Virus record (IMG/VR): IMGVR_UViG_3300024346_000406
Span: 1-27,535 of that record
Length of the DNA: 27,535 bases
Source of the DNA: a virus
Reading direction: 5' to 3' (one strand)
Below are positions 7,649 through 25,090 of this stretch, piece by piece. Below the pieces are notes generated by a model. The model was not told the DNA's origin, did not search any database, and saw only the letters and a list, made by a program, of their open reading frames with translations. The position numbers and the translations under genes are program-made. How positions within the stretch are numbered: the first letter of the stretch is position 1; each line of letters starts with the position of its first letter.

Positions 7649-8065
7649 ATGGCAACACACACTGGACACTCAGGCGTAGTCACAGTTGGCAGTAATATTG
7701 TCGCTGAAGTAAAAGACTTTTCGATTGAGATAACTGCTAACACAGTTGACGCAACAACTCTTAATGCCGCTGCAGCTGATGCTGGTTGGACTAAAACTAA
7801 AGTAACTAACAGATCATGGTCTGTAAGCATTAACTGCTTTATGGATGATGGCGCAGCTAATGGACAAATTGACATGGTTAATAACATTAATCAGTCTGTT
7901 ACTGCTATGCTTGCTAACGCAGGTGTATCTATTTCATGTGAAGCAGGTGGCGATACTTTTGCTGGAGACGTACTAATTACGTCAATGTCGGAATCAGTTT
8001 CTGGTGACGGACTTGTTGAAGTTTCGTTTACTGCAACTGGTCTAGGCGCACTTACAATTTCATAA
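7649..8065 (+). CDS. major tail (tube) protein
   Basis: The 138-residue, Gly/Ala/Thr-rich beta protein has the tail tube pattern: GVVTVGSNIVAEVKDFSIE near the N-terminus, a middle TKVTNRSWSVSINCFMDD, then GDVLITSMSES and a final VEVSFTATGLG. Such proteins stack as hexamer rings to make the tail tube. A good ribosome site (GAGGTAA, 7637-7643) agrees with high expression. The position between tail terminator and tail assembly chaperone is standard. Confidence 0.85.
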   Translation: MATHTGHSGVVTVGSNIVAEVKDFSIEITANTVDATTLNAAAADAGWTKTKVTNRSWSVSINCFMDDGAANGQIDMVNNINQSVTAMLANAGVSISCEAGGDTFAGDVLITSMSESVSGDGLVEVSFTATGLGALTIS

Positions 8066-8076
8066 GGAACTAAACC

Positions 8077-8400
8077 ATGGGAAAATTAATTGATAGTGCC
8101 GTAGCGCACTTCAGTGGGAAGCAAGTTAGAAGTATTCGGGTAGATGAGTGGGATTGCACTCTCTACTCGAAGAACCTATCTTTAGAAGACAAAGCTAGAT
8201 GGTTTGCTAGAGCCGATGGTGATAACACAGATTATCTTGTTTACGCCTTAATATTTGGCGTAACAGATGAGAAAGGTGACTCAGTATTCGACCTGAGCGA
8301 TAAAGCAAAGCTAAGAAAAAATGTTGACCCTGAAGTCTTGAGTAAAGTAGCTAACTTTGTTCTTTATATCGATGAAGAAGAGGAACGCGAAAAAAACTAA
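8077..8400 (+). CDS. tail assembly chaperone, short form (gpG-like)
   Basis: The 107-residue protein matches the short chaperone made from G-type genes: WDCTLYSKNLSLEDKARWFARA, then YALIFGVTDEKGD and a helical, acidic end (EEEEREKN). It binds the tape measure protein during tail assembly and is not part of the finished tail. The last codons GAA AAA AAC precede the TAA stop and form a slippery site from which a longer product is expected. Confidence 0.82.
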   Translation: MGKLIDSAVAHFSGKQVRSIRVDEWDCTLYSKNLSLEDKARWFARADGDNTDYLVYALIFGVTDEKGDSVFDLSDKAKLRKNVDPEVLSKVANFVLYIDEEEEREKN

Positions 8401-8564
8401 TAAATGATCAAGGTGTGCCAACTGAAACTTATTATATGTTTCACTTAGCAGAACACCTTGGTCAACCACTCTCGACCATCTTAGCAATGACACCAGATGA
8501 GTTTAATTATTGGTTTACTTATTTGCGTATAAAACACGAGCAGACTGAGGCAAGAAATGGCTAA
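8077..8564 (+). CDS. tail assembly chaperone, -1 frameshift form (gpGT-like)
   Basis: A -1 slip at A AAA AAC (8391-8397) continues in the frame starting CTA at 8397, reading 55 further codons to TAA at 8562-8564. The extension includes TYYMFHLAEHLGQPLS, ILAMTPDEFNYWFTYLRIKH and a short polar end, a pattern typical of the T part of GT chaperones. The total is about 162 residues. It ends eight bases inside the tape measure gene. Without a frameshift the 156 bases between chaperone and tape measure genes would have no explanation. Confidence 0.88.
8391..8464 (+). promoter_or_regulatory. -1 programmed frameshift element
   Basis: The slippery heptamer A AAA AAC (8391-8397) is followed by a 7-base spacer and a 12-bp stem: TGATCAAGGTGT (8405-8416) with ACACCTTGGTCA (8453-8464), eleven Watson-Crick pairs and one G-U. 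The 36-base loop holds a nested 6-bp stem TGAAAC (8423-8428) with GTTTCA (8438-8443). A 5-9 base spacer before a stable structure is the known optimum for -1 frameshifting. The zero-frame stop TAA lies directly after the heptamer. Confidence 0.85.
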
Positions 8565-10257
8565 GACCGCACAAGCAGTAATCGAAACTAAAGTCAAAGA
8601 CGGAGCGTCTGCTGGCTTCCGTAAAGTTGATAAGGCAATGCAAAATACTGCGAAGCAGGGTAAAGTCCTGAATCAGCAGTTTAGGTTTATGCGTGGCGGT
8701 CTAGGTCAGGTAGGTCATCAGGTGCAGGATGTCGCTGTACAGTTACAGATGGGACAGAATGCCATGTTGGTATTCGGTCAGCAGGGTTCACAAATTGCCT
8801 CTTTATTCGGACCTGGTGGCGCGATGTTAGGTGCTGTTCTAGCTGTAGGTGCTGCTCTTAGTATGAGTTTAGCTCCTTCATTTTTCGGTGCTACTGAAGC
8901 CGCTAAAGAACTAAAAAATGCTAACAAAGACCTGATTGATAGTTTTGACAGCCTAAGCCCGGCACAACAAAAGTTTGCCAAAATTTTAGCTACAAAAAAA
9001 TTAGAAGAATATGAGGCAGAGTTAAAAAAACTTAATGAAACAACAAGAGATCAGATGACAACTGTTCTTACTGGCTCATTTGGTATTGTTTATGGTCGTA
9101 AAGATTTAGAAACGCTCGAAGAATATAATGAGCGTATTACTAAACTTGATAGTGATACTGATTTTTACGAAGCAGCAATAGCTGCTCTTAAAGAAAAGGT
9201 TGATAACACTACGACTGCCTTTGAAAAGCAAGATGTGGCACTAAAAAAACAAATAGGCACATTTGGGATGTCTTCTCTTGCAATAAAAGATTATGAGATT
9301 AGACAAAAAGTCTTGCGTGATGAACTAACGCTGACTGAAGGCTTACAGTTAATCTTTCATCTTGCTGAATTAAATCGTTTAGAAGAGGCTAAAGCTGCAA
9401 GAGAAGAAGAGCAAAAACTCTCATCAGAAGCACAGCAAAAACTTAAGCAAGAAGCAGAGAAAAAGTTACAGCTAGAGGAGAATCAAAAAAACCAACGTAT
9501 ACTAGCGGTTAATAATTTAATAGCAACTTTAGACCTAGAGATTGCTAAGACCAAAGAAACAGAATATGCAAATTTAAGCGCACGAATTGCTGTAGCTGAT
9601 CTCACTGATGGTGAAAGAAAATTAATCCAAGCTAAAATGGATAAGTTAAAAGTTTTAGATGCAGAGAAGAAGAGAAAGGAAAAGCTAGACGAGTGGGAAA
9701 AGAAGTCTGCAACAGAAAAAAGCGCACATCTTGCAGGTGAAGCGGCTAAATCATTTGGGGCATTTGCACATAATAGCAAAAAAGCAGCAGCTTTACAGAA
9801 GACAGTGCAGATCGCCCAGGCAACAATGAATACAATAACAGGTGCAACAGCTGCGCTTGATGACTATCCCGTGCCTATAAACTTTGCAATGGCTGCTATG
9901 ACTGTAGCGCAAGGTATGGGTATGGTTAGCCAGATTAAAGCGCAATCGTTTGACGGTGGTGGTTTTACTGGTGCAGGTTCTAGGACAGGCGGTGTAGATG
10001 GTAAAGGTGGCTTTCCTGCTATACTTCACCCTAATGAGACTGTTATTGACCATACAAAATCAAATCGAGGAGCTGGTTCATCAGTTGGCGATAGCATTGT
10101 GGTCAATCAAACAATCAATGTCACAACTGGTGTACAATCTACAGTAAGATCAGAAATACAAAACATGATGCCACAAATTGCTGAATCTGCACAAAATGCT
10201 GTGCTTAATGCTAGGATGAGGGGCGGTAGTTACTCTAAAACATTATTAGGTCGATAA
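8557..10257 (+). CDS. tail tape measure protein
   Basis: The 566-residue protein sets tail length and is expelled with DNA at infection. The N-terminal part has the TMP pattern GASAGFRKVDKAM and GQVGHQVQDVAVQLQMGQ, FGQQGSQIASLFGPGGA, then a hydrophobic segment (about residues 88-108). The middle (about 120-420) is charged, heptad-rich and helical. The C-terminal part has Ala/Gly-rich hydrophobic helices and GGGFTGAGSRTGGVDGKGG with HPNETVIDH, as in other phage tape measures. It is short for the family, which suggests a short flexible tail. TGAGG at 8546-8550 supports the start. Confidence 0.9.
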   Translation: MAKTAQAVIETKVKDGASAGFRKVDKAMQNTAKQGKVLNQQFRFMRGGLGQVGHQVQDVAVQLQMGQNAMLVFGQQGSQIASLFGPGGAMLGAVLAVGAALSMSLAPSFFGATEAAKELKNANKDLIDSFDSLSPAQQKFAKILATKKLEEYEAELKKLNETTRDQMTTVLTGSFGIVYGRKDLETLEEYNERITKLDSDTDFYEAAIAALKEKVDNTTTAFEKQDVALKKQIGTFGMSSLAIKDYEIRQKVLRDELTLTEGLQLIFHLAELNRLEEAKAAREEEQKLSSEAQQKLKQEAEKKLQLEENQKNQRILAVNNLIATLDLEIAKTKETEYANLSARIAVADLTDGERKLIQAKMDKLKVLDAEKKRKEKLDEWEKKSATEKSAHLAGEAAKSFGAFAHNSKKAAALQKTVQIAQATMNTITGATAALDDYPVPINFAMAAMTVAQGMGMVSQIKAQSFDGGGFTGAGSRTGGVDGKGGFPAILHPNETVIDHTKSNRGAGSSVGDSIVVNQTINVTTGVQSTVRSEIQNMMPQIAESAQNAVLNARMRGGSYSKTLLGR

Positions 10258-15354: not shown

Positions 15355-15699
15355 ATGACAGCAGGAAAATATGACATAACGATTGAGCAAGGCTCGGACT
15401 TTAGTTTAACCCTAAATATTAAGCAAGGCGGCGTGGCTCGAAACTTATCTGGCTATACTGCGCGTGGCTCTATGCGTAAGACTTACGATGCTACAACAGC
15501 GCATGACTTCACTTTTGGCGCACTAGACAGCACAGGTGTTATCTTGATGGAAATGTCTCACGCAGATACAGCACAGCTAGACGCTGAGTTTTATGTTTAT
15601 GACGTTGAGATTTACACTGGCACAGGAGAAGCAGGTGACAGCGTTACAAGATTGCTGCAAGGTAAAGCAGAAGTAACTAGAGAAGTCACTCGTGCCTAG
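15355..15699 (+). CDS. fibre connector-like protein, copy 1
   Basis: This 114-residue beta protein is a paralogue of the protein encoded at 16991-17329. Shared positions include KYDITIEQGSDFSL versus KYNITIDQGSDFEL, LSGYTARGSMR versus LSGYDARAQLR, YVYDVEIY versus YVYDIEIF and TRLLQGKAEVTREVTR versus TRILQGKATVTGEVTR. The fold looks Ig-like, reminiscent of the N-terminal domain of upper baseplate proteins such as BppU, but that link is tentative. Each copy is directly followed by a different fibre gene, so it may connect the fibre to the tip or serve its assembly. Confidence 0.65.
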   Translation: MTAGKYDITIEQGSDFSLTLNIKQGGVARNLSGYTARGSMRKTYDATTAHDFTFGALDSTGVILMEMSHADTAQLDAEFYVYDVEIYTGTGEAGDSVTRLLQGKAEVTREVTRA

Positions 15700-16990: not shown

Positions 16991-17329
16991 ATGCCAGCAG
17001 CGAAATACAATATTACAATAGATCAAGGCTCTGATTTTGAATTATCAATTCAAATCTATGAGGATGATGCTGTTAAAAGTCTTAGCGGTTACGATGCTAG
17101 AGCGCAACTGAGAAGCAAAGCTGACTCGCCGCATAAGGTTGACTTTGATACTACTGGCAGTTCTTTTGATGCTACAGGCACAGTAAAGATAGCCTTATCT
17201 AATTCAGTTACTAAAGGCATTGATGCGGGTGATTATGTTTATGACATTGAGATATTTGAAAGCGGTGATTCTACCGTAACTAGAATACTACAAGGCAAAG
17301 CAACAGTGACAGGTGAGGTTACTAGATAA
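16991..17329 (+). CDS. fibre connector-like protein, copy 2
   Basis: A 112-residue paralogue of the protein at 15355-15699, with the same overall beta pattern and conserved ends (ITIDQGSDFEL; GDYVYDIEIF; TRILQGKATVTGEVTR). The middle portions differ more. Its stop overlaps the start of the next fibre gene (TAATG), so the two are probably co-translated. It is preceded by its own candidate promoter. Confidence 0.65.
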   Translation: MPAAKYNITIDQGSDFELSIQIYEDDAVKSLSGYDARAQLRSKADSPHKVDFDTTGSSFDATGTVKIALSNSVTKGIDAGDYVYDIEIFESGDSTVTRILQGKATVTGEVTR

Positions 17330-23565: not shown

Positions 23566-23589
23566 AAAAAACCCCCTCCGAAGAGGGGG
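23566..23589 (-). terminator. intrinsic terminator acting on the - strand
   Basis: CCCCCTC (23572-23578), loop CGAA, GAGGGGG (23583-23589), with six A residues before it (23566-23571). Read on the - strand this is a 7-bp GC stem with TTCG loop followed by TTTTTT, an ideal intrinsic terminator. On the + strand no T-run follows. It would block leftward transcription into the ERF operon. Confidence 0.7.
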
Positions 23590-23599
23590 CAAACCATAG

Positions 23600-23654: not shown

Positions 23655-23870
23655 ATGATTGATACAGCAAAGTGCCTAAAGATGGCACAAATTCACCTAG
23701 ATGTATCTAGTGTTGAGTTAGCTAAGATGACGGACAGTACACCGCAGCAAGTAGTACGGTGGAGAGCGCAAGCTAACATGAAGATACATACCATAGACAA
23801 GATATGTAAGGCGATGAATATATCGATTTATGATTTCTTGTTATACCAGAAAATAGAAACCCCCAATTAA
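23655..23870 (+). CDS. Cro-like helix-turn-helix regulator
   Basis: The 71-residue protein has an HTH of the XRE/Cro type: SSVELAKMTDSTPQQVVRWRA as helices two and three, then MKIHTIDKICKAMNISIYDFL, the usual fourth and fifth helices. AAAGGAA (23640-23646) supports the start. The small size and single domain fit Cro-like repressors. Its own operator is unknown; dyads before the methyltransferase gene (24185-24204) are candidates. The stop codon lies within a terminator hairpin. Confidence 0.82.
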   Translation: MIDTAKCLKMAQIHLDVSSVELAKMTDSTPQQVVRWRAQANMKIHTIDKICKAMNISIYDFLLYQKIETPN

Positions 23871-23884
23871 GGGGGTTTACTTTT
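23857..23884 (+). terminator. terminator overlapping the regulator stop codon
   Basis: AAACCCCC (23857-23864), loop AATTAA, GGGGGTTT (23871-23878), then ACTTTT. The perfect 8-bp stem with T-rich end can act on the + strand; the mirror A-run also allows weak action on the - strand. The TAA stop of the regulator sits in the loop. Confidence 0.68.
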
Positions 23885-23938
23885 AGTCTCAGGAAAGACT
23901 ATACTTGAATCTACGACAAAACAAGTAAGCTAAGTATA
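23884..23938. repeat. cluster of inverted repeats
   Basis: TAGTCT (23884-23889) pairs with AGACTA (23896-23901); TATACTT (23900-23906) pairs with AAGTATA (23932-23938); ACTTG (23903-23907) could instead pair with CAAGT (22 bases on, 23922-23926). Overlapping choices suggest either alternative RNA folds or protein-binding dyads. Confidence 0.4.
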
Positions 23939-23965
23939 CCATACTATCCTTTCCATAGAAGTATT

Positions 23966-23985
23966 ATCTTGTCTTATCTTGTCTT
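23966..23985. repeat. tandem 10-base repeat
   Basis: ATCTTGTCTT is repeated twice head to tail with no gap, followed by a third partial match (GTGT). A 10-base period puts both copies on the same face of the helix, as expected of paired regulator sites, but chance cannot be excluded. Confidence 0.4.
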
Positions 23986-23993
23986 GTGTATTC

Positions 23994-24173
23994 GGGCTTG
24001 GGGCTGACGAACTCCTTAAATAAAACGTCAGAGCGTGGTTGACCCTCCAGACAAAGCCCTCGATGCAGATCGGTTTCTGCAAAGAGATAGGTTGGATATC
24101 CGATACGAATACAATGTAACCGCAAAGTTGCTATGCCCTTTGATCTTAAATTTCGCTCCGCGCAGTGAAAGGG
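23994..24173 (+). ncRNA. candidate structured RNA in a gene-free region
   Basis: The 395 bases from 23871 to 24265 hold no credible gene. Within them: GGGCTT (23994-23999) pairs with AAGCCC (24054-24059), enclosing CTGACG (24004-24009) with CGTCAG (24026-24031); then TGCAGA (24064-24069) with TCTGCA (24076-24081); then TTTCGCT (24151-24157) with AGTGAAA (24164-24170, one G-U), competing with CCCTTT (24136-24141) and AAAGGG (24168-24173). ATCGG (24069-24073) could alternatively pair with CCGAT (24100-24104). No tRNA, known riboswitch or other RNA family is recognised. Strand and ends are uncertain. Confidence 0.3.
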
Positions 24174-24184
24174 TTAAATAATGC

Positions 24185-24211
24185 TTGTACATATACAAAT
24201 ATGTATATAAT
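24185..24211 (+). promoter_or_regulatory. promoter with overlapping operator-like dyads
   Basis: TTGTAC (24185-24190), 15 bases, TATAAT (24206-24211) lies before the methyltransferase gene (start 24266). The -35 and spacer hold two overlapping inverted repeats: TTGTA-CATA-TACAA (24185-24198) and ACATA-TACAAA-TATGT (24189-24204). A repressor bound here would block the promoter. The Cro-like protein encoded upstream is an obvious candidate. Confidence 0.55.
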
Positions 24212-24265
24212 ATAAATATTAAATTAATCGGGCGAAACTTTAGTTGAGCCATATAGGAGTGGGAA

Positions 24266-25090
24266 ATGAATGTATTAAGTTTGTTTGACGGAATGAGTTG
24301 CGGAAGAATCGCACTCGAAAGAGCAGGAATTAAAGTAGATAAATACTTTGCTGCTGAGATTGATAAGTACGCTATACAGATAGCTAATAAGAATTACCCA
24401 GACACTATTCACCTGGGTGATGTCCAAGAAGTAATATACCCTGAGTCATTTGATGGACATAAGATTGACTTGGTGATTGGTGGCTCGCCTTGTCAGGGAT
24501 TTAGCTTTGCAGGGCAAAGACTTAACTTTGATGACCCACGCTCAAAACTATTCTTTGAATACGCTCGATTAGTGAAAGAGTGTAATCCTAAATACTTTTT
24601 GCTAGAAAATGTACGCATGAAGCAAGAATGCCAAGACGTTATTAGCGATATTCTTGGAGTCTATCCCATACCTATTAACTCAAGTCTGGTTTCAGCTCAA
24701 AGCAGAAAAAGATTGTACTGGACAAATATCCCACGGGTATCTCAACCAGACGATAAAGCTATTGTTTTAAAAGATATACTCGAAAATGGCATTGTAGACA
24801 GGGATAAATCACACTGCATTGATGCTAACTATTTCAAGGGTGGAAATTTAAAGCAATACTTTGAAAAACATAGAAGACAGCTTGTATTTAGTGAAGATGG
24901 TTTATGTCACATAGGGACTGCTGATGATGAAAAGCGATGGAGAAAGCTAACACCACTAGAGTGTGAGCGACTACAGACTGTTCCTGACGGCTATACCGTG
25001 GGTGTTTCAAACAGCCAGAGATACAAGATGCTAGGCAACGGTTGGACAGTTGACGTTATTTCACATATATTTAAAAACATGGAGGCGTGA
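24266..25090 (+). CDS. DNA cytosine-5 methyltransferase, DNMT3-like
   Basis: The 274-residue enzyme has motif I LSLFDGMSCGRIAL (4-17), motif IV GGSPCQGFSF (72-81; catalytic C76), motif VI ENVR (114-117), motif VIII QSRKRLYW (145-152), motif IX TPLECERLQTVPDGYT and motif X RYKMLGNGWTVDVI (252-265). The FDGMSCG form of motif I and the short target-recognition part (about 153-225) are typical of a DNMT3-like group common in phages. No restriction enzyme is next to it, so it is an orphan, probably protecting phage DNA from host restriction. AGGAG (24255-24259) supports the start. Confidence 0.92.
   Translation: MNVLSLFDGMSCGRIALERAGIKVDKYFAAEIDKYAIQIANKNYPDTIHLGDVQEVIYPESFDGHKIDLVIGGSPCQGFSFAGQRLNFDDPRSKLFFEYARLVKECNPKYFLLENVRMKQECQDVISDILGVYPIPINSSLVSAQSRKRLYWTNIPRVSQPDDKAIVLKDILENGIVDRDKSHCIDANYFKGGNLKQYFEKHRRQLVFSEDGLCHIGTADDEKRWRKLTPLECERLQTVPDGYTVGVSNSQRYKMLGNGWTVDVISHIFKNMEA

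What the first reader, a model, noticed from the sequence alone, without database searches (positions are those of the whole stretch)
8391..8464. Complete -1 frameshift cassette with a 12-bp stem and nested hairpin in the tail chaperone gene
The slippery heptamer A AAA AAC lies directly before the stop, a 7-base spacer follows, then a 12-bp stem (one G-U pair) whose 36-base loop holds a second 6-bp stem. The -1 frame encodes a typical GT-type C-terminus ending at 8564. G/GT frameshifting is known in many siphophages; a stimulatory structure this clear, with a hairpin inside the loop, is less usual and could set a defined ratio of the two forms.
Basis: partly seen in the sequence, partly recalled or inferred. 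Interest (0 to 1): 0.72.

Follow-up and report, generated by a model that had tools for sequence, protein, structure and literature searches.

The report
Phage tail-gene frameshift signal with hairpin
A marine tailed phage carries a built-in ribosome-slipping signal (slippery bases plus an RNA hairpin) that should make a longer version of its tail-building helper protein; the slipping itself is a well-known trick of tailed phages, but here the slippery site, its spacing and the hairpin are shown to be preserved by evolution in more than 70 related phage sequences.

Summary
It is far from chance. In 73 aligned sequences from related phages the heptamer is always canonical (62 A AAA AAC, 11 G GGA AAC). 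The heptamer-to-stem spacing is always 7 nt, even where the zero-frame stop has moved. Eight stem pairs are unbroken in every distinct sequence, and at least five independent double changes preserve pairing. Synonymous sites are frozen over the site and both stem arms but not over the loop. The G GGA AAC variants argue against transcriptional slippage. The nested hairpin is only partly supported: its register drifts, but the loop folds better than synonymous controls in 23 of 25 representatives. Best explanation: lambda G/GT-type programmed -1 frameshifting stimulated by a conserved hairpin. It is a new member of a known kind; the fusion protein and its ratio are untested.

The parts
8077..8400 (+). 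G ORF, tail assembly chaperone, 107 aa (zero-frame product)
   Evidence: phrog_344 tail assembly chaperone E = 3e-7; 12 of 12 relatives match phrog_344 and phrog_16513
8377..8384 (+). Shine-Dalgarno-like GAAGAGGA; [quoted passage not shown]
   Evidence: motif in the experimentally proven spacing window (PMC4066793) in 48/50 relatives vs a synonymous-null mean of 27.7, max 36; synonymous variability about 0.6 of average. Predicted pairing energy itself is hardly above the null (mean z -0.44)
8391..8397 (+). slippery heptamer A_AAA_AAC
   Evidence: canonical in 73/73 aligned sequences: A AAA AAC 62, G GGA AAC 11
8398..8400 (+). zero-frame stop TAA
   Evidence: position not fixed in relatives (for example AAAAAAC TCC TAA, TTC TAA), while the spacer stays 7 nt
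8398..8404 (+). 7-nt spacer
   Evidence: length constant in all 73 aligned sequences (ungapped alignment A5)
8405..8416 (+). 5' arm of the stimulatory stem
8417..8452 (+). 36-nt apical region; inner hairpin 8423-8428 with 8438-8443 (register variable in relatives)
8453..8464 (+). 3' arm of the stimulatory stem
   Evidence: CTT 50/50 and GGT 49/50 codons
8397..8564 (+). -1 frame T extension, 55 codons plus stop; fusion GT of 162 aa
   Evidence: open in the relatives; phrog_16513 spans residues 5-151 of the fusion; conserved LAEHLGQP, MT and W motifs
8557..10257 (+). tape measure protein; its start ATG overlaps the T stop (ATGGCTAA)
   Evidence: phrog_1538 E = 3e-27; overlap of T end and tape-measure start common in relatives
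7649..8065 (+). major tail protein upstream (expected neighbour)
   Evidence: phrog_1407 E = 7e-18; PF06199 E = 0.0012, below its gathering score

Best explanation
This is a programmed -1 ribosomal frameshift signal of the lambda G/GT kind. Most ribosomes end at 8398-8400 and release gpG (107 aa). A minority pause on A AAA AAC when the ribosome meets the stem starting 7 nt downstream; [quoted passage not shown] The stem is an elongated imperfect hairpin: a conserved 9-11 bp base (12 bp in the window) plus a folded but sequence-variable top. An upstream GAGG/AGGA probably adds pull through 16S rRNA pairing. gpG should coat the tape measure protein and the T part should recruit the major tail protein. 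Shown here: the anatomy, conservation, covariation, frame and gene context. Inferred: that slippage occurs, its rate, the role of the upstream element, and gpG/gpGT function (from lambda).
For: Fold z = -5.7. All 73 aligned sequences keep a canonical heptamer and the 7-nt spacer. Pairs at columns 40-47/90-97 are unbroken in 71 distinct sequences; 95% of stem cells paired vs at most 46% when slid; 12 double-change cells vs 1.7 shuffled, 0/500. On a tree, both sides changed independently: columns 41/96 to C-G twice and G-C once, 44/93 to G-C, 48/89 to C-G or G-C. Synonymous variability 0.33-0.6 of average over about 8371-8414 and 0.59-0.65 near 8448-8464, but about 0.9-1.2 in the loop. Upstream SD-like motif enriched. 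Synteny and family matches. Distant relatives (pelagiphages, DSL-LC06, phi3LM21, L020-L022) keep an A AAA AAC or A AAA AAG site at the same junction.
Against: No product was measured. A AAA AAC and G GGA AAC are low-efficiency heptamers in E. coli (PMC4066793). The sequences are related, so shuffle controls overstate significance; tree counts are the safer figure. Two pelagiphages (HTVC026P, HTVC202P) keep the site without a strong near hairpin, so the hairpin is not universal in the wider family. The window's inner hairpin alone is not significant against a synonymous null (z = -1.2, p = 0.13).
Confidence: 0.95

Rival explanations
1. Transcriptional slippage on the A run makes mRNAs with an added or missing A, so that T is read without ribosomal slipping.
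For: Seven A in a row in the window (8390-8396), nine in HTVC026P.
Against: Eleven of the 73 aligned sequences have G GGA AAC, with no long homopolymer; the heptamer changed about four times on the tree and always to another ribosomal slippery heptamer. A downstream hairpin at constant 7-nt spacing is what a ribosome responds to.
Confidence: 0.02
2. T is an independent or reinitiated ORF starting at GTG 8415 or ATG 8436, and the stem controls its start.
For: In-frame GTG 8415 and ATG 8436 exist; the ATG is kept in 48/50 relatives.
Against: The ATG is replaced by GTT or GTA in L080 and L083. It lies inside the stem loop with no good ribosome-binding site before it (by inspection). Changes in the 5' arm before it are mostly synonymous in the -1 frame (GAT/GAC, CAA/CAG, GGT/GGA/GGC), so that stretch looks translated in the -1 frame. 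A canonical heptamer is fixed.
Confidence: 0.02
3. The inverted repeat is a DNA or RNA element unrelated to frameshifting (protein-binding palindrome, processing site or terminator) that happens to follow the heptamer.
For: Inverted repeats are common, and a 12-bp stem arises at 0.2% of positions.
Against: U-G is the commonest state of pair 42/95 and G-U is frequent at 47/90: RNA wobble, not a DNA palindrome. No T run follows. Spacing to the heptamer is fixed at 7 nt while the stop moves. No Rfam match.
Confidence: 0.02
4. The heptamer alone drives low-level frameshifting, as described for lambda; the conserved stem is a minor or condition-dependent modulator.
For: Some tailed-phage shifts seem not to involve stimulators (PMC5009743); HTVC026P and HTVC202P lack a strong near hairpin.
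Against: Stem conservation with independent compensatory changes; AAC-ending heptamers are weak in E. coli and should need help (PMC4066793).
Confidence: 0.12

Closest known systems
Phage lambda G/GT tail assembly chaperone frameshift
   Same: Gene order major tail protein, G, T in -1 frame, tape measure; slippery heptamer at the end of G; GT fusion predicted.
   Different: A AAA AAC or G GGA AAC as the site; a conserved downstream hairpin and an upstream SD-like element, whereas the 2016 review says that certain tailed-phage shifts seem not to involve stimulators, citing the lambda papers (PMC5009743, sections 6 and 9).
E. coli dnaX and IS911 -1 frameshift cassettes
   Same: Three parts: SD-like sequence upstream, A-rich heptamer, stem-loop downstream (IS911 has a three-way junction; PMC5009743).
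   Different: Heptamer ends in C rather than G, a class weak in E. coli (PMC4066793); different gene and purpose; the stem here is mostly an unbranched elongated hairpin.
Pelagiphages HTVC111P/112P/026P/202P tail gene
   Same: Homologous G with A AAA AAG or A AAA AAC at its end and an open -1 T frame.
   Different: HTVC111P/112P use a compact 7-bp stem (AGCGACC/GGTCGCT); HTVC026P/202P have no strong near hairpin. The T half is not annotated in these records.
Phage DSL-LC06 tail assembly chaperone
   Same: A AAA AAC TAG followed after 5 nt by an outer stem (GAGGATGCT/AGCATCCTC) that encloses an inner hairpin.
   Different: Unrelated stem sequence and a longer enclosed region; the resemblance rests on one fold prediction.

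Membership tests
lambda G/GT-type tail chaperone frameshift | G homologue between major tail protein and tape measure genes | tested here: met
   phrog_344 E = 3e-7, phrog_1407 upstream, phrog_1538 downstream; 12/12 relatives match
lambda G/GT-type tail chaperone frameshift | overlapping -1 frame T region open to the tape measure start, homologous to known T | tested here: met
   open 8397-8564, stop overlaps ATG 8557; phrog_16513 matches residues 5-151 of the fusion, 12/12 relatives; phrog_337 only weak for T alone (E = 0.008)
lambda G/GT-type tail chaperone frameshift | conserved canonical slippery site at the end of G | tested here: met
   73/73 aligned sequences
lambda G/GT-type tail chaperone frameshift | GT fusion made at low ratio and needed for tail assembly | not testable with these tools
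   needs proteomics and phage genetics
hairpin-stimulated bacterial -1 frameshift (dnaX/IS911 class) | hairpin starting 4-10 nt after the motif, stability at least 7.6 kcal/mol (criteria of PMC4066793) | tested here: met
   7 nt, -24.3 kcal/mol; first pair is U-A, the G-C follows after 8 nt; compensatory changes
[quoted passage not shown]
   GAGG at 8 nt; 48/50 relatives vs 27.7 expected; hybrid energy hardly above null
hairpin-stimulated bacterial -1 frameshift (dnaX/IS911 class) | measured dependence of frameshifting on the stem | not testable with these tools
   needs a reporter assay
transcriptional slippage site | long homopolymer run (about 9 A or T, from general knowledge) kept in relatives | tested here: not met
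   7 A here; run broken by GGGAAAC in 11/73
frameshift pseudoknot | conserved pairing of the loop with downstream bases | tested here: inconclusive
   no pseudoknot program was run; by inspection the best loop-downstream pairing (4 bp) leaves too short a linker across an 11-bp stem, and the downstream CTCTCG is not kept in deeper relatives

The most novel reading that the evidence does not exclude
The clade keeps a deliberately weak AAC-type heptamer (A AAA AAC or G GGA AAC, never AAG in 73 sequences) and offsets it with a strong, covarying long hairpin and an SD-like element, so that the G:GT ratio is set by the stimulators rather than by the slippery site; the variable folded top may tune the rate from phage to phage.
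Probability: 0.3. Interest if true: 0.5.

Novelty: new member of a known kind. Interest (0 to 1): 0.36.

Why it matters
It gives a well-supported stimulatory hairpin in a tail-chaperone frameshift, backed by covariation across many uncultured phages, where the lambda model is described as lacking one. It offers natural variants (two heptamers, moved stops, drifting loop) for testing how phages set the G:GT ratio. Practically, the T half is missing from annotation in four pelagiphage records that could now be corrected.

Tried and rejected
Transcriptional slippage (broken A run in relatives). Independent start of T at ATG 8436 (start lost in two relatives). DNA palindrome or terminator (G-U pairs, no T run). 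Pseudoknot with the conserved downstream CTCTCG: linker too short, and the conservation is limited to the near clade; no pseudoknot software was run. Rfam search: nothing. Nucleotide search of named phages: no real match. Genome search for a host: one contig in an archaeal MAG that has the same length as the IMG/VR contig of L089 and is probably misbinned, so the host stays unknown. Binding strength of the SD-like element to 16S rRNA: hardly above the synonymous null, although motif presence is enriched. Another in-frame A AAA AAG at 507 with stable downstream RNA was checked: the -1 frame closes after four codons. Three cited phage papers (on P2, A2 and lambda) were not held in the library, so the comparison with lambda rests on the 2016 review.

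Full report
WHAT WAS CHECKED. The sequence at 8391-8464 is as described. ORF 8077-8400 ends ...GAA CGC GAA AAA AAC TAA, so the heptamer is A_AAA_AAC in the zero frame, directly before the stop. After 7 nt comes TGATCAAGGTGT (8405-8416), complementary to ACACCTTGGTCA (8453-8464) with one U-G pair. The 36-nt loop holds TGAAAC/GTTTCA. RNA folding gives this as the minimum and the centroid, -24.3 kcal/mol, z = -5.7, none of 200 shuffles as stable. The -1 frame gives a 162-aa fusion that ends at 8564. Among 118 slippery-type heptamers of the window this one is followed by the longest stem at proper spacing; such a stem occurs at about 0.2% of positions.

WHAT IT LIES IN. The ORF before it is a major tail protein, the ORF after it a tape measure protein, and 8077-8400 matches the tail assembly chaperone family phrog_344. 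The fused protein matches another tail chaperone family, phrog_16513, over residues 5-151, across the frame junction; all twelve relatives tested match it. Pfam support is only below threshold.

CONSERVATION. Protein searches brought 50 distinct sequences, the window included, and then 23 more. They align without gaps from upstream of the heptamer to beyond the stem. The search patterns were peptides, mostly away from the signal; one pattern overlaps the 3' arm at protein level (HLGQ). All 73 have a canonical heptamer: 62 A AAA AAC, 11 G GGA AAC. The two forms interchange with about four parsimony changes on a tree of the G gene, although K becomes G in the protein. The stop is not always adjacent (AAAAAAC followed by TCC TAA, TTC TAA, TTC TGA, TCA TAA or TCA TAG), yet the heptamer-to-stem spacing is always 7 nt. 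What is kept is therefore slippery site plus stem, not stop plus stem.

STEM. On 71 distinct sequences the eight pairs at columns 40-47 with 90-97 are never broken; 95% of the cells of the 11-bp stem pair, against at most 46% when the arms are slid. Double changes that keep pairing occur at columns 41/96 (A-U, G-U, G-C, C-G), 44/93 (A-U to G-C), 47/90 and 48/89; on the tree several are independent: L083, L169, L175/178, L121/129, L095/096, L098. The 12th pair seen in the window (8416/8453) is not conserved, so the conserved stem is 9-11 bp. U-G is the commonest state of one pair, which points to RNA rather than a DNA palindrome. The shuffle controls ignore relatedness; the tree counts are the safer measure.

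SYNONYMOUS SITES. Codon variability relative to expectation falls to 0.33-0.6 over about 8371-8414 (upstream element, heptamer, spacer, 5' arm), is 0.9-1.2 in the loop, and falls again to 0.59-0.65 near 8448-8464 (3' arm); Leu CTT is used 50/50 and Gly GGT 49/50 there. The T end also shows low values where it overlaps the tape-measure start.

NESTED HAIRPIN. The exact inner stem is not conserved (68% of cells of an 8-bp inner stem paired). Yet the loop folds more stably than codon-synonymous versions of itself in 50/50 sequences with the window's codon usage (mean z -2.3), and in 23 of 25 representatives thinned to under 80% loop identity with pooled codon usage (mean z -1.7). For the window itself the effect is not significant (z -1.2). 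The reading is that a folded top is favoured and its register is free. Distant DSL-LC06 shows a similar nested shape with unrelated sequence, which is a lead only.

UPSTREAM ELEMENT. [quoted passage not shown] coli (PMC4066793). It is present in 48/50 sequences; synonymous resampling gives 27.7 on average and never more than 36. Where the local protein sequence changes, an SD-like purine run often persists. Hybrid energy with 16S rRNA is hardly above the null, so the element is likely but not proven.

WIDER FAMILY. Pelagibacter phages HTVC111P and HTVC112P have A AAA AAG plus a 7-bp stem; HTVC026P and HTVC202P have A AAA AAC with more A and no strong near hairpin; Sinorhizobium phage phi3LM21 has A AAA AAC GAC TGA; L020-L022 have A AAA AAC followed by an 8-bp stem with the stop in its loop. 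The frameshift is therefore older than this particular stem.

MECHANISM AND LITERATURE. In lambda the G:GT ratio is about 30:1, G binds the tape measure and T the tail tube protein, and certain tailed-phage shifts seem not to involve stimulators (PMC5009743). A_AAA_AAC and G_GGA_AAC are low-efficiency motifs in E. coli, though likely used by IS elements (PMC4066793). A weak heptamer with a strong stem is thus a plausible way to reach a defined low ratio, but no rate was measured and the host is unknown.

VERDICT. The finding is real and its main interpretation is supported; it is a new member of a known kind with unusually good comparative evidence. The nested hairpin and the ratio remain open.

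Noticed in passing
8377-8384: Conserved SD-like GAAGAGGA before the slippery site; the GAG codon is used in 44/50 relatives although Glu codons are about evenly split overall in these genes.
   Followed up: yes
8557-8564: ATGGCTAA: the tape measure start overlaps the stop of the -1 frame T extension, so frameshifted ribosomes end at the next start; T end and tape-measure start overlap in most relatives.
   Followed up: partly
23571-23590: A strong leftward intrinsic-terminator-like hairpin (minus strand GCCCCCTCTTCGGAGGGGGT then TTTTT) although the neighbouring likely genes are on the plus strand; suggests a leftward transcript from about 23.6-24.3 kb.
   Followed up: partly
23857-23878: AAACCCCCAATTAAGGGGGTTT, a near-perfect palindrome at the end of the small ORF 23655-23870, terminator-like on both strands.
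   Followed up: no
23870-24266: About 400 bases without an evident plus-strand gene before the C-5 cytosine methyltransferase gene 24266-25090.
   Followed up: no
15355-15699 and 16991-17329: Two ORFs with similar start sequences (KYDITIEQGSDFSL / KYNITIDQGSDFEL) flanking a Peptidase_S74 tail fibre gene; the second weakly matches LtfC, suggesting a duplicated small tail module.
   Followed up: no
507-513: In-frame A AAA AAG in ORF 103-534 with stable RNA downstream (-25.9 kcal/mol), but the -1 frame closes after four codons; probably chance.
   Followed up: yes
L024-L027: In the four pelagiphage records the T half of the tail chaperone is not annotated; in HTVC111P and HTVC112P a minus-strand hypothetical gene is annotated over it.
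   Followed up: yes
L104: A contig of this phage group sits in a Euryarchaeota MAG (JABJFP010000292.1) with the same length (10238) as the IMG/VR contig of L089; probably a binning error.
   Followed up: no
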